A program made the position numbers and the translations under genes. A stretch of 37,406 nt of DNA from Candidatus Saganbacteria bacterium (lineage in GTDB: Bacteria; Margulisbacteria; WOR-1; XYC2-FULL-46-14): contig JABMQY010000112.1 of the NCBI GenBank assembly GCA_013202975.1, positions 1-37,406 on the forward strand, read 5' to 3'. Positions 20,443-23,918 of this stretch are shown here, piece by piece (position 1 is the stretch's first letter; every line of letters starts with the position of its first letter). The notes beneath the pieces were generated by a model. That model had not been told where the DNA came from. It saw nothing but the letters and a program-made list of their open reading frames with translations, and did no database searches.

Positions 20443-20515
20443 GCCGCGGTAGCTCAGTCGGTAGAGCAGTAGCCTGAAAAGCTATGTGTCGGCGGTTCGA
20501 TTCCGCCCTGCGGCA
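20443..20515 (+). tRNA. tRNA-Phe (GAA)
   Basis: Cloverleaf read by eye: GCCGCGG/CTGCGGC acceptor, GCTC..GAGC D-arm, GTAGC CTGAAAA GCTAT anticodon arm, GGCGG TTCGATT CCGCC T-arm. No encoded CCA. Confidence 0.96.
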
Positions 20516-20545
20516 TTCTCCTACGCCCTTCGGGCTTCGGAGAAT
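20515..20545 (-). repeat. GAA-motif palindromic element A
   Basis: Minus strand: ATTCTCC-GAA-GCCC-GAA-GGGC-GTA-GGAGAAT; abuts the 3' end of tRNA-Phe. Confidence 0.85.
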
Positions 20546-20569
20546 TTTCATGCTAAGATAGTTGCTTCA

Positions 20570-20598
20570 TCCTCCGAAGCACGAAGTGCGAAGGGGGA
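20570..20598 (+). repeat. GAA-motif palindromic element B (left unit flanking GIY-YIG)
   Basis: TCCTCC-GAA-GCAC-GAA-GTGC-GAA-GGGGGA. Confidence 0.88.
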
Positions 20599-20640
20599 CG
20601 GAGAATTTTCCTTGAAAATTGATTTGAAATATGAAGAAGA

Positions 20641-20669
20641 CCTCCTAAGCTCCTAAGGAGAGAAGGAGG
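20641..20669 (+). repeat. Degenerate GAA-type hairpin B2 overlapping the GIY-YIG ribosome-binding site
   Basis: CCTCC-TAAG-CTCC-TAA-GGAG-AGAA-GGAGG; the 3' arm GGAGG is the SD for ATG 20674. Confidence 0.75.
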
Positions 20670-20673
20670 GATA

Positions 20674-20928
20674 ATGGCTAGAAATTATTTAGTTTATGTT
20701 TTGAGAAGTGAAAGAGACGGAAGATTTTACACTGGACTAACAGTAGATTTGGAAAAAAGAATTAGGGAACATCAAGAAGGCCTAAGTAAGTATACGAAGA
20801 ACAAAGGTCCTTGGAAATTAAAGTGGTACGGAGTTTTTTCTGATATACAATTGGCAGAAAAATTTGAAAGATATTTGAAAACAGGATCGGGAATTGCCTT
20901 TTGCAGAAAAAGACTTTTGAGGGTATAA
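20674..20928 (+). CDS. GIY-YIG nuclease family protein
   Basis: 84 aa; YLVYVLRSERDGRFYTGLTVDLEKRIREHQEG (VYVL...YTG), C-terminal AEKFERYLKTGSGIAFCRKRLL. Confidence 0.93.
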   Translation: MARNYLVYVLRSERDGRFYTGLTVDLEKRIREHQEGLSKYTKNKGPWKLKWYGVFSDIQLAEKFERYLKTGSGIAFCRKRLLRV

Positions 20929-20949
20929 TAAATTTTGCTGTAAGGAATA

Positions 20950-21040: not shown

Positions 21041-21071
21041 GTCCTACGAAGCTCAGAGAGCGAAGTAGGAC
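21041..21071 (+). repeat. GAA-motif palindromic element D
   Basis: GTCCTAC-GAA-GCTC-AGA-GAGC-GAA-GTAGGAC, perfect stems. Confidence 0.92.
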
Positions 21072-21111
21072 GGCACCACGTTTGTAGAACTAAATATAAA
21101 GGAGCGATTGC

Positions 21112-21711
21112 GTGAAAAAAATAAAGCAACACAGAAACAAGGTTTGGTTCTTACTGGGAATAGTATTCTTTATGGCAGCGGTTTTGTCTATTTTCTTTTT
21201 CGCTGTTCCAAAAGGGGCGGATATTGAGGTTGTGTTGCGGGGCGAGGCTGCGGGGATGGGGGGAGAGCCGCTGATCCTTTTTTCTGTATTTGCCTTTACC
21301 ATGGCAACCGTTTCTGTCGCAAAAGGCTACGAGGTTTTTAAGCACGAAAGAGAGAAGAAGAGGGATTTGCTGCAAACTCAACTGGATGAGCTGCGCTGCC
21401 AGAATAGTCATATTCACTCAATTAATAACGAGCTTGCAGAAAAGCATGTAAAGACCAGAAGGGAAAAAAATGAGTTGTCCCATCTTTTAAATGAACTGCA
21501 TGATGAGTCCAGAAAAAAAGATGAACATGAAAAACTGCTCCACAAAAGTATTCTGGTATTGAAAAACGATATTGAGAAATTGCTTTCCCAAAAAAAAGAG
21601 TTGCTTTTTGAGGTGAACAGGAGAGAACCGGCCGCCAAAAAGGTCAAAATGCAAAAAACGATGAAGAAAAAGATTCCAAAGAAAGGCAGGAGGAAGAATG
21701 CAAAAGCTTAA
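21112..21711 (+). CDS. Hypothetical membrane-anchored coiled-coil protein
   Basis: 199 aa; two hydrophobic N-terminal segments then a long charged coiled coil; GTG start. Confidence 0.75.
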   Translation: MKKIKQHRNKVWFLLGIVFFMAAVLSIFFFAVPKGADIEVVLRGEAAGMGGEPLILFSVFAFTMATVSVAKGYEVFKHEREKKRDLLQTQLDELRCQNSHIHSINNELAEKHVKTRREKNELSHLLNELHDESRKKDEHEKLLHKSILVLKNDIEKLLSQKKELLFEVNRREPAAKKVKMQKTMKKKIPKKGRRKNAKA

Positions 21712-22333
21712 ATGGGTATTGTTTCTGGTTTTATTTTTAGTTTTGGGGACGGTTGCCAGCGCTGATTTAACATTTTATCTGGTAGATAATTTTGAATCAA
21801 ACTCGGCCTCAAGATGGTTTTCTTTTGGCCCGATTGAAATGAAGGTGGTCCCGAATCCTCTAAACAGCAAAAGAGATCTGATCGCAGAGTCATGCGGTAA
21901 TTATTTGCTCAACCTGAGCGGGAAAGCAAACGATTGGTATATCGGGGGAATCGGAACCGATTTAATGCTGGACGCATCCTCATACAGCCGGCTGCAGATT
22001 GATATATATGGCAGCATTAATTATGGAAAACTCAGGATTGAGCTCTACGATGATGATAACGGAAATTCCCAGATCGAGCAGGATAAAAATTGGCAGCCTT
22101 TGTATGACGATAAATGGGCGGTAGAGATTCCTATCCTGGGTCCCGGATTTACCAGGGTATCAATTCCTTTTAGCGCCTTTGTTGATGATAATCCCGGGAT
22201 CGGAGATGATAAGTGGAATCCTTCGAATCAAAGAGGATCGGCCGGATTGGCAAGGCTCCAGATGGTTTTTGTCTCAAAAGAAAAGGTTGGAAAGGTTGAT
22301 GTTGGCATAGATAATATCTTGCTGACATACTGA
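21698..22333 (+). CDS. Secreted hypothetical protein, possible galactose-binding/CBM-like fold
   Basis: 211 aa; signal peptide MQKLKWVLFLVLFLVLGTVASA; DNFES...RLQIDIYGSINYGKLRIELYDDDNG...FTRVSIPFSAF..VDVGIDNILL resembles carbohydrate-binding jelly rolls. Confidence 0.7.
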   Translation: MQKLKWVLFLVLFLVLGTVASADLTFYLVDNFESNSASRWFSFGPIEMKVVPNPLNSKRDLIAESCGNYLLNLSGKANDWYIGGIGTDLMLDASSYSRLQIDIYGSINYGKLRIELYDDDNGNSQIEQDKNWQPLYDDKWAVEIPILGPGFTRVSIPFSAFVDDNPGIGDDKWNPSNQRGSAGLARLQMVFVSKEKVGKVDVGIDNILLTY

Positions 22334-22366
22334 AGCTCCCAGCGATTTTTTCGCGGGAGCGAAAGT
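22329..22366 (+). repeat. Degenerate GAA-flanked hairpin E1
   Basis: ACT-GAA-GCTCCC-A-GCGA-TTTTT-TCGC-GGGAGC-GAA-AGT; begins at the stop codon of the 21698-22333 CDS. Confidence 0.65.
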
Positions 22367-22404
22367 CCGCCGAAGCCACGAGCGAAGCGAGGGCGTAGGC
22401 GGAC
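22365..22404 (+). repeat. GAA-motif palindromic element E2
   Basis: GTCCGCC-GAA-GCC-...CGAGCGAAGCGAG...-GGC-GTA-GGCGGAC; contains an internal GCGAAGC mini-hairpin. Confidence 0.82.
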
Positions 22405-22428
22405 TAAAAAAAGGGGTGAAGAATCAAT

Positions 22429-23889
22429 ATGAAAAAAATAAATTCTCTTGGAATTCTGATTGTTCTTGGTATTTTGTTAACAGGATCCATCTCTTTTGCT
22501 TTAAGTTTTAAAGACTACGATCCAAAAGGGGTAGTTTTTAAAGCTGGTCCGACCGGTCCGGGCGAGGAATTGTCTATTCCCTGGGTAGAAGCGGTGCTTT
22601 ATCCCAAAAAAGTTGAAGCCGGACGCGATTTTTTTGTTGAGGTCAGCCTGGCTTCAAAAGTAAAAAGTGTTGTTGCAGAATTAGACCAGTATAAAACTGT
22701 TGCTCTTTTTTCAAAAGACCAGAGCAATTGGAATGTTGTAATTCCATCCCCCAAGGATGCAGATGACGGCCTGCATTTTATTAAAGTAAAAATTGAAGGG
22801 CAAAATGGCAGACGGGTGGAGCGTACCCTTGCTTTTAGAATAGTTGGAAAGAGCCCGGCTCAGGCCAAGGCTTATTCTTTTCCTCTTTCACTAAAAGAAG
22901 ATACCAGGCTTTCAAGAGGCGCTTTGAAGGCAGGTGCCAAGGTTGAGGCTTTGTACCGCAAGACCTATTATTGGGTAAAGGGAAAAAATGGTTCAGAGGG
23001 ATGGGTTGAGGCATCAAAAGTAGAAATTCCGAAACGGGAAATTTTTGTTGCTGCCTATCAGTCTTATCTGAACCAAGAATATAATAAGGCTGTCTCTTTT
23101 TATAAACAAATATTATTGGTTGATGAAAAAAATGCTGACGCAAGTTATTGGCTGGCAAAAACTTATGACAGGGTCGGGGACGAAATAAAAACAGTTGAAC
23201 ACCTTGAAGAAGCCCTTGCTTCTGACCCGCGCCATGAGGGCGCCAACTGGATGGCCGGAAAACTAGCCCGGCAATATTATAGAAAAGGGAATGTCTTAAC
23301 CCGGATGAAAAAGCCAAAAGAGGCGCTGCTGGCGTTTCAACAGGCGGTTTCTTTGCGTCCTGCTTCTATCTCTTATTGGTTAAGGCTTGGAACTGAATAT
23401 GAAAACCTGGGGGACCAGGAAGCTGCTCAGGATGCCTGGAAGCAGGTTCTGTTAGTCGATCCGGACAATAAGGATGTGCATGCTCTGCTTCGAACCGACT
23501 ATTACAAGTTGATTTCTAATGAAGAAGAAAAGGTTGCCAAAAAGACTGCAGCAAGGGTTGTTAAATCTAAACCCAAATCTCCCGGAAAAAACAGCAAGAT
23601 GTCGCTGCAGTTCATTGATGTGGTCAAAAAGAGCCGGACTAATAAAGGTACTATCGTATCGTCAGCCCTAAAGTCTGTTGTGAGTATGACTAAATCCCTG
23701 GGAACCAGGATATACGAAGAGGGCTGGAAGAGCACTTTAACCCCGCAGGGTTTTTTGGTTACTTATGTTTGCAAGCAGGAGCGCCTGGGAAAGATCGAGC
23801 CGGAGAACTTTATTTTTAGGGTTGATCTGGATTCGCGTAAGGTTGAACCGCGCAATAAAAATGCACGCTTGTTAATGCATCGTTGGTAA
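22429..23889 (+). CDS. Secreted TPR protein with Ig-like and SH3b-like regions
   Basis: 486 aa; signal peptide; AGAKVEALYRKTYYWVKGKNGSEGWVEASKVEI (SH3b-like), TPRs (ADASYWLAKTYDRVGDEIKTVEHLEEAL, ISYWLRLGTEYENLGDQEAAQDAWKQVL). Confidence 0.82.
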   Translation: MKKINSLGILIVLGILLTGSISFALSFKDYDPKGVVFKAGPTGPGEELSIPWVEAVLYPKKVEAGRDFFVEVSLASKVKSVVAELDQYKTVALFSKDQSNWNVVIPSPKDADDGLHFIKVKIEGQNGRRVERTLAFRIVGKSPAQAKAYSFPLSLKEDTRLSRGALKAGAKVEALYRKTYYWVKGKNGSEGWVEASKVEIPKREIFVAAYQSYLNQEYNKAVSFYKQILLVDEKNADASYWLAKTYDRVGDEIKTVEHLEEALASDPRHEGANWMAGKLARQYYRKGNVLTRMKKPKEALLAFQQAVSLRPASISYWLRLGTEYENLGDQEAAQDAWKQVLLVDPDNKDVHALLRTDYYKLISNEEEKVAKKTAARVVKSKPKSPGKNSKMSLQFIDVVKKSRTNKGTIVSSALKSVVSMTKSLGTRIYEEGWKSTLTPQGFLVTYVCKQERLGKIEPENFIFRVDLDSRKVEPRNKNARLLMHRW

Positions 23890-23918
23890 CCTCCTTCGCT
23901 CTCTGAGCTTCGGAGGTT
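23888..23918 (-). repeat. GAA-motif palindromic element F
   Basis: Minus strand: AACCTCC-GAA-GCTC-AGA-GAGC-GAA-GGAGGTT, perfect stems; overlaps the stop codon of the TPR gene and ends 9 nt before tRNA-Thr. Confidence 0.92.

What the first reader, a model, noticed from the sequence alone, without database searches (positions are those of the whole stretch)
20515..23918. Family of covarying palindromes with one architecture: outer stem - GAA - inner stem - triloop - inner stem - G(A/T)A - outer stem
Seen in sequence: A (20515-20545, minus) ATTCTCC-GAA-GCCC-GAA-GGGC-GTA-GGAGAAT; B (20570-20598) TCCTCC-GAA-GCAC-GAA-GTGC-GAA-GGGGGA; D (21041-21071) GTCCTAC-GAA-GCTC-AGA-GAGC-GAA-GTAGGAC; E2 (22365-22404) GTCCGCC-GAA-GCC...GGC-GTA-GGCGGAC; F (23888-23918, minus) AACCTCC-GAA-GCTC-AGA-GAGC-GAA-GGAGGTT. 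C, B2 and E1 are elaborated or degenerate relatives. The stems differ from copy to copy but stay complementary, while the symmetric GAA/GAA (or GAA/GTA) internal loop is held. That implies selection on a folded DNA or RNA shape rather than on sequence. Established knowledge: d(GCGAAGC) is an exceptionally stable DNA mini-hairpin (GNA triloop), and GA-containing internal loops can form sheared G-A pairs. B and A have C-GAA-G loops and E2 contains GCGAAGC itself. Inference: these are mobile or structured elements recognised as single-stranded hairpins, analogous to REP elements, and may be a class without a name.
Basis: partly seen in the sequence, partly recalled or inferred. Interest (0 to 1): 0.82.

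Follow-up and report, generated by a model that had tools for sequence, protein, structure and literature searches.

The report
tRNA-nested nuclease element with hairpin ends
The palindromes are the ends and scattered remnants of a tiny mobile element that sits against the 3' end of a tRNA gene and carries one nuclease gene; the same nuclease, hairpins and tRNA arrangement recur in unrelated bacterial phyla, which suggests an overlooked, very small kind of mobile DNA.

Summary

Four of the six (A-D) are parts of one object, window 20515-21071: tRNA-Phe | hairpin(-) | hairpin(+) | GIY-YIG nuclease gene (84 aa) | hairpin(+) | hairpin(+). Relatives of this nuclease (a subfamily ending ..YLK(S/T)GSGxAF) from other phyla, including Patescibacteria, Omnitrophota, Verrucomicrobia and Bradyrhizobium, carry the same hairpin next to the gene (63 times background density) and lie directly behind tRNA genes (48 of 80 loci, 15 isotypes, about 0.6 expected). 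Other small GIY-YIG subfamilies in the same genomes lack this hairpin. Several elements are followed by an isotype-matched copy of the tRNA 3' end. Bradyrhizobium tRNA-Tyr genes show empty, hairpin-only and full states.

Best explanation: a minimal mobile element targeting tRNA 3' ends; its hairpin ends also spread alone as REP-like repeats. It works like REP/RAYT but with a GIY-YIG nuclease and without GTAG or CGTC tags. Recognition of hairpins as single-stranded DNA is inferred, not shown.

The parts
20515..21071 (+). Whole element: hairpin A(-), hairpin B(+), GIY-YIG gene, hairpins C(+) and D(+)
   Evidence: Architecture conserved in relatives
20442..20516 (+). tRNA-Phe (GAA); its 3' end is the insertion site
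   Evidence: ARAGORN and Rfam; the same tRNA-Phe junction GCGGCA|TTCTCC in relative L060
20515..20545 (-). Hairpin A, left end; starts at the last base of the tRNA
   Evidence: tRNA-end to minus-hairpin spacing of 1 nt recurs in other phyla
20570..20598 (+). Hairpin B, second arm of the upstream (-,+) doublet
20674..20928 (+). GIY-YIG nuclease, 84 aa, intact, RBS GGAGGG; subfamily with C-terminal ..YLKTGSGIAF..
   Evidence: Pfam PF01541, 60.9 bits against cut-off 22.6; alignment with conserved Tyr, Arg, Glu
20950..20998 (+). Hairpin C, downstream of the stop codon on the gene's strand
   Evidence: all 10 downstream hairpins in other genomes are on the gene's strand
21041..21071 (+). Hairpin D, right end
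21071..21078 (+). CGGCACCA: probable eroded copy of the tRNA-Phe 3' end (..GCGGCA + CCA)
   Evidence: relative L060 has the full copy GGCCTGCGGCA at the same place. Too short to stand alone
22365..22404 (+). Hairpin E2, solitary copy between genes, contains GCGAAGC
23888..23918 (-). Hairpin F, solitary copy 10 bp upstream of tRNA-Thr (23928-24000)

Best explanation
The palindromes are the terminal hairpins of a minimal mobile element whose only gene is a GIY-YIG nuclease. The element inserts at the 3' end of tRNA genes, leaves the tRNA intact upstream and in some cases a copy of the tRNA's last 14-20 nt downstream. Hairpins at the two outer ends lie on opposite strands, so each end presents the GAA/G(A/T)A shape on a different strand, like terminal inverted repeats. 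The nuclease probably binds that shape when the strand is exposed (replication or cruciform) and nicks beside it, and host repair or replication completes the insertion. Hairpins, alone or as (-,+) doublets, are moved in trans or left after gene loss, giving REP-like repeats. Shown: anatomy, subfamily-specific hairpin association, tRNA targeting, isotype-matched duplications, variable occupancy at one tRNA site. Inferred: nuclease-hairpin recognition, single-strandedness, insertion chemistry, trans-mobilisation.
For: 1) 80 loci of this nuclease subfamily, many phyla: 91 of 102 model hits lie within 300 bp of the gene, 2.0/kb near against 0.032/kb elsewhere; 81 upstream (41+, 40-), 10 downstream all +. 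2) Same-strand tRNA within 300 bp upstream in 48 of 80 loci, 15 isotypes, background 0.008 per locus, none antisense. 3) tRNA end to minus hairpin is 1 nt in about 20 loci, doublet gap 31-34 nt in most. 4) Specificity: in Margulisbacteria, hairpins flank only the GSGxAF-type subfamily; the other small GIY-YIG loci have none. 5) Isotype-matched tRNA 3'-end copy of 14-20 nt downstream in 8 of 54 loci, against 10 of 2586 mismatched-isotype controls and 0 of 52 upstream controls. 6) Bradyrhizobium tRNA-Tyr: full elements of two types, hairpin-only cassettes, and tRNAs with no cassette. 7) At least 30 changes of tRNA isotype on the nuclease tree. 8) Stand-alone doublets have the same (-,+) order: 8 of 9 close pairs. 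9) Dispersed copies in other phyla: 40 in B. barranii, 24 in a 1.5 Mb Parcubacterium.
Against: Genome-level link between gene and copy number is modest (Fisher p=0.011); some relatives have 10-19 copies and no nuclease of this subfamily. Alphaproteobacterial elements show no downstream hairpin or tRNA copy. Duplication lengths vary, so they are not a fixed target-site duplication. Three stand-alone doublets show no flanking duplication. No transposition or cleavage has been observed; the nuclease tree is poorly resolved.
Confidence: 0.7

Rival explanations
1. Free-standing homing endonuclease gene: the nuclease cuts the unoccupied tRNA locus and is copied in by double-strand-break repair; the hairpins are passengers, for example terminators or markers that protect the occupied site.
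For: GIY-YIG domain; T4 SegB is a free-standing GIY-YIG endonuclease in a tRNA gene region (PMC2988022); tRNA kept intact, as expected of homing elements; another small GIY-YIG in this genome overlaps a group I intron.
Against: Homing needs flanking homology at one site, but at least 30 isotype changes are seen; hairpins conserved across phyla and tied to one nuclease subfamily; stand-alone copies away from tRNAs.
Confidence: 0.2
2. REP elements moved by a RAYT/TnpA-REP (Y1 HUH) transposase, the GIY-YIG gene being a bystander.
For: Palindromic, intergenic, doublets; a Y1_Tnp gene exists in this genome.
Against: No Y1_Tnp gene lies near any listed hairpin copy; three genomes with 11-20 copies (G007, G024, G059) have none. 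No GTAG foot beside the stem.
Confidence: 0.04
3. RNA-level regulators: TCCTCC/GGAGGA stems sequester Shine-Dalgarno sequences, or act as terminators or tRNA-processing signals.
For: Many outer arms are GGAGG; a few copies lie 14-15 nt before an ATG (C15:7112, C15:6645, C86:18210).
Against: Other stems (CCCGCC, TTCTAC, AACCTCC) do not match a Shine-Dalgarno; both orientations occur among co-directional genes; no T-run; nuclease and tRNA linkage unexplained.
Confidence: 0.06

Closest known systems
REP elements / REPINs with RAYT (TnpA-REP), 'REPtrons'
   Same: Short imperfect palindromes, mostly intergenic, singlets and inverted doublets, flanking a nuclease gene thought to mobilise them (PMC3116915, PMC8266576, PMC3733652)
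   Different: Partner is GIY-YIG, not HUH; no GTAG tag beside the stem; gene sits at tRNA 3' ends; hairpin carries a symmetric GAA/G(A/T)A internal loop
CGTC-tagged REPs, including Neisseria dRS3
   Same: Palindromes of similar size, head-to-head dimers, many in Alphaproteobacteria, no transposase assigned (PMC3733652)
   Different: No CGTC tag or CCA tail here; stems and loops differ
Ssn, site-specific single-strand GIY-YIG nucleases (Neisseria NTS)
   Same: From memory only: GIY-YIG nuclease paired with a dispersed repeat, cuts it as ssDNA
   Different: Paper not held, sequences not compared; tRNA nesting and mobility of the gene are not part of what I recall
Free-standing GIY-YIG homing endonucleases (T4 Seg, SegB at tRNA genes)
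   Same: GIY-YIG, intergenic, tRNA region (PMC2988022)
   Different: No hairpin ends or dispersed repeats that I know of, fixed site; here many tRNA isotypes
IS200/IS605 insertion sequences
   Same: Structured hairpin ends, minimal size
   Different: HUH transposase, no duplication; ends here are on opposite strands
Integrative elements at tRNA 3' ends (tyrosine recombinases)
   Same: tRNA 3' end target, partial copy at the far side
   Different: No integrase; only about 0.5 kb; copy matches whichever isotype is occupied

Membership tests
REP (GTAG) / RAYT REPtron | GTAG tetranucleotide at the foot of the hairpin | tested here: not met
   Flanks of copies carry no constant GTAG; GTAG occurs only inside the loop of GTA variants
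REP (GTAG) / RAYT REPtron | Flanked Y1 HUH transposase gene | tested here: not met
   PF01797 hits lie away from every listed hairpin copy
REP (GTAG) / RAYT REPtron | Dispersed intergenic palindromes with inverted doublets | tested here: met
CGTC REP | CGTC tag, 8-9 bp stem, 4-5 nt loop, CCA tail | tested here: not met
   Sequences against PMC3733652
GIY-YIG superfamily | GIY-YIG catalytic domain with Tyr, Arg, Glu | tested here: met
Ssn nucleases | Site-specific cleavage of single-stranded repeat DNA | not testable with these tools
   No biochemistry; Ssn paper and sequence not held
Free-standing homing endonuclease | Cuts unoccupied allele and is copied by repair | not testable with these tools
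   Occupied and empty tRNA-Tyr sites exist; cutting not tested
Free-standing homing endonuclease | Single conserved insertion locus | tested here: not met
   15 tRNA isotypes, at least 30 isotype changes
Transposable element | Defined ends, variable occupancy, target duplication | tested here: inconclusive
   Ends and occupancy shown; duplication isotype-matched but of variable length and in a minority
Named Rfam RNA family | Match at gathering score | tested here: not met
   Only tRNAs in the window

The most novel reading that the evidence does not exclude
A general, unnamed class of sub-kilobase transposable elements driven by single-domain GIY-YIG nucleases, each subfamily with its own hairpin code and its own way of entering tRNA genes (3' end for this one, 5' half for a mirror class seen here), leaving REP-like repeats across many bacterial phyla.
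Probability: 0.45. Interest if true: 0.92.

Novelty: new variant of a known kind. Interest (0 to 1): 0.8.

Why it matters
Many bacterial palindromic repeats have no known mobiliser: the CGTC repeats, for example, are not associated with transposase genes (PMC3733652). This links one repeat family to a specific nuclease subfamily across phyla, gives defined ends and a target (tRNA 3' ends), and makes GIY-YIG-driven mobility directly testable. It would also explain why small GIY-YIG genes and palindromes cluster at tRNA genes in many uncultured bacteria, and offers small structure-specific nucleases as possible tools.

Tried and rejected
A plain sequence pattern is too loose in relatives (control pattern often as frequent), hence the covariance model. 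RAYT association rejected. Flanking duplications around three stand-alone doublets: none. Rfam: no family. NCBIfam: no specific family for the nuclease. Literature searches found no description of these elements; the Ssn paper is not held. DNA folding energies of the GAA strand are somewhat lower than those of its complement in the four cases tried, but the differences are small and do not decide which strand matters. Structure prediction was not run: sequence already places the protein in the GIY-YIG fold.
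Full report
OBSERVATION. The palindromes A, B, C, D, E2 and F are in the sequence at the stated places. 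The window belongs to a 2.2 Mb draft genome of 139 contigs; its order-mate G003 matches a record titled Candidatus Margulisiibacteriota. The core pattern CGAAGC..GCGWAG occurs 53 times in this genome against 6 for the reversed control. A covariance model (R1) built from 22 copies finds 49 in this genome, 1-20 in 22 relatives and none in 37. Outer stems covary; because those copies were chosen by pairing, an unbiased test was made on motif-only elements beside GIY-YIG genes of other genomes: 3.07 of 5 outer positions pair, against 1.92 with partners shuffled, maximum 2.28.

THE OBJECT. A-D are not independent. From 20515 to 21071 the order is tRNA-Phe | A(-) | B(+) | 84-aa GIY-YIG gene | C(+) | D(+). 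The gene is intact, with a GGAGGG ribosome site and a 60.9-bit PF01541 match. Its closest relatives in the phylum (G003, G024, G031, G059) have hairpins on both sides: the downstream one on the gene's strand 10-20 bp after the stop, the outer upstream one on the opposite strand. G024 sits at tRNA-Phe with the same junction GCGGCA|TTCTCC and is followed by a copy of the tRNA end, GGCCTGCGGCA. The window retains only CGGCACCA after D, so its right-hand copy is probable but eroded.

ACROSS PHYLA. A scan of 85,488 species genomes with the subfamily alignment gave 508 relatives, of which 80 loci were kept. R1, trained only on this genome, gives 102 hits (E<0.01) there; 91 lie within 300 bp of the gene: 2.0 per kb against 0.032 per kb elsewhere. 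The upstream pair is (-,+) and the minus hairpin begins 1 nt behind the tRNA in about 20 loci. Same-strand tRNAs end within 300 bp upstream in 48 loci of 15 isotypes, with a background of 0.008 per locus. The nuclease tree, weakly resolved, needs at least 30 isotype changes. These facts point to repeated insertion behind different tRNAs rather than to one inherited neighbourhood.

SPECIFICITY. In Margulisbacteria, R1 hits flank the loci whose protein has the ..YxKSG(S/A)GxAF.. tail (L036, L059, L060, L061, L066, L069, L071; weak in L062) and not the other small GIY-YIG loci in the same search.

TARGET COPY. In 8 of 54 tRNA-associated elements an exact copy of the tRNA 3' end (14-20 nt, extending up to 3 nt past the tRNA) follows the element; the copy matches the isotype actually occupied. 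Mismatched isotypes give 10 of 2586, regions upstream of the tRNA 0 of 52. Near-exact copies occur in L129, L158 and L195. Because the tRNA is already intact upstream, the copy is not needed for tRNA function and is more likely a trace of the insertion event. Variable length argues against a fixed staggered cut.

OCCUPANCY. At the Bradyrhizobium tRNA-Tyr gene, different species show two types of full element (L198, L199; L200 and others), hairpin-only cassettes starting exactly at the CCA end (L206, L212, L229, L240, L245 and others; tandem in L237), and tRNAs followed by unrelated sequence (L228, L232, L239, L241, L243).

DISPERSED COPIES. In this genome 23 of 31 examined copies lie outside ORFs of at least 90 codons, against 28% of random positions; only about six are within roughly 100 bp of a tRNA. 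Close pairs among 150 hits are (-,+) in 8 of 9 cases, the same order as the element's upstream doublet. B. barranii has 40 copies and a 1.5 Mb Parcubacterium 24. The hairpins therefore also spread as REP-like repeats. The genome-level correlation with the nuclease is only moderate (p=0.011).

MECHANISM. Established knowledge: GNA triloops and sheared G-A pairs stabilise GAA-type DNA hairpins, and GIY-YIG enzymes nick or cut DNA. Inference: the GAA/GWA loop is the recognised shape; outer hairpins on opposite strands act as terminal inverted repeats; the nuclease nicks near hairpin and tRNA end; host repair finishes. None of the chemical steps is shown here.

COMPARISON. It works like REP/RAYT (hairpin repeats plus their own nuclease) but fails the defining GTAG-foot and HUH-transposase features. 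It resembles free-standing GIY-YIG homing genes such as SegB in a tRNA region (PMC2988022) but is not tied to one locus and has hairpin ends. A GIY-YIG nuclease acting on a dispersed repeat (Ssn/NTS in Neisseria) is recalled from memory; the paper was not available, so this link is a lead only.

MIRROR CLASS. Sixteen loci of other small GIY-YIG subfamilies have the tRNA downstream (8-89 bp in 15 of them, 339 bp in one) and a 14-68 nt piece of the same tRNA, mostly its 5' part, upstream of the gene, commonly interrupted by a different palindrome. This suggests that tRNA nesting is a general habit of these nucleases.

VERDICT. Real, conserved and, as far as could be searched, undescribed. Anatomy and associations are strong; the mobility mechanism is inferred.

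Noticed in passing
L065, L067, L068, L070, L072-L077, L080-L085 (relatives' genomes): Mirror class: other small GIY-YIG genes have a tRNA downstream and a duplicated 14-68 nt piece of that tRNA, mostly its 5' part, upstream, commonly broken by a different palindrome (CCTGCCTGCCGGCAGGCAGG and others).
   Followed up: partly
L046 3986-4325 (own genome contig C43): Group I intron (Rfam RF00028) overlapping a GIY-YIG ORF in what reads like a circularly permuted tRNA-Asp gene (3' half before 5' half).
   Followed up: partly
L044 about 5460-5640 and L045 1-184 (own genome contigs C9, C111): GIY-YIG genes of other subfamilies behind tRNAs with different palindromes (GGTTCGACTCGCTGCGCTCGC..; ATGCACCGTACGGTGCAT).
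   Followed up: no
window 20391-20418: Another palindrome, GTAGTCCCTCGACAGGCTCGGGACTAC, just upstream of tRNA-Phe; possibly a different repeat family.
   Followed up: no
own genome C15:6645, C15:7112, C86:18210: Solitary hairpins 14-15 nt upstream of an ATG whose GGAGG arm lies at the Shine-Dalgarno; may reflect target preference.
   Followed up: no
L060 (G024:C102): tRNA-Phe end plus the whole left hairpin cassette is repeated after the element, as if inserted into an already occupied site.
   Followed up: no
own-genome copies at C95, C86 (two), C44, C74, C15:6645, C99, C57: Eight of 31 hairpin copies fall inside ORFs of at least 90 codons; some may be real insertions into genes.
   Followed up: no
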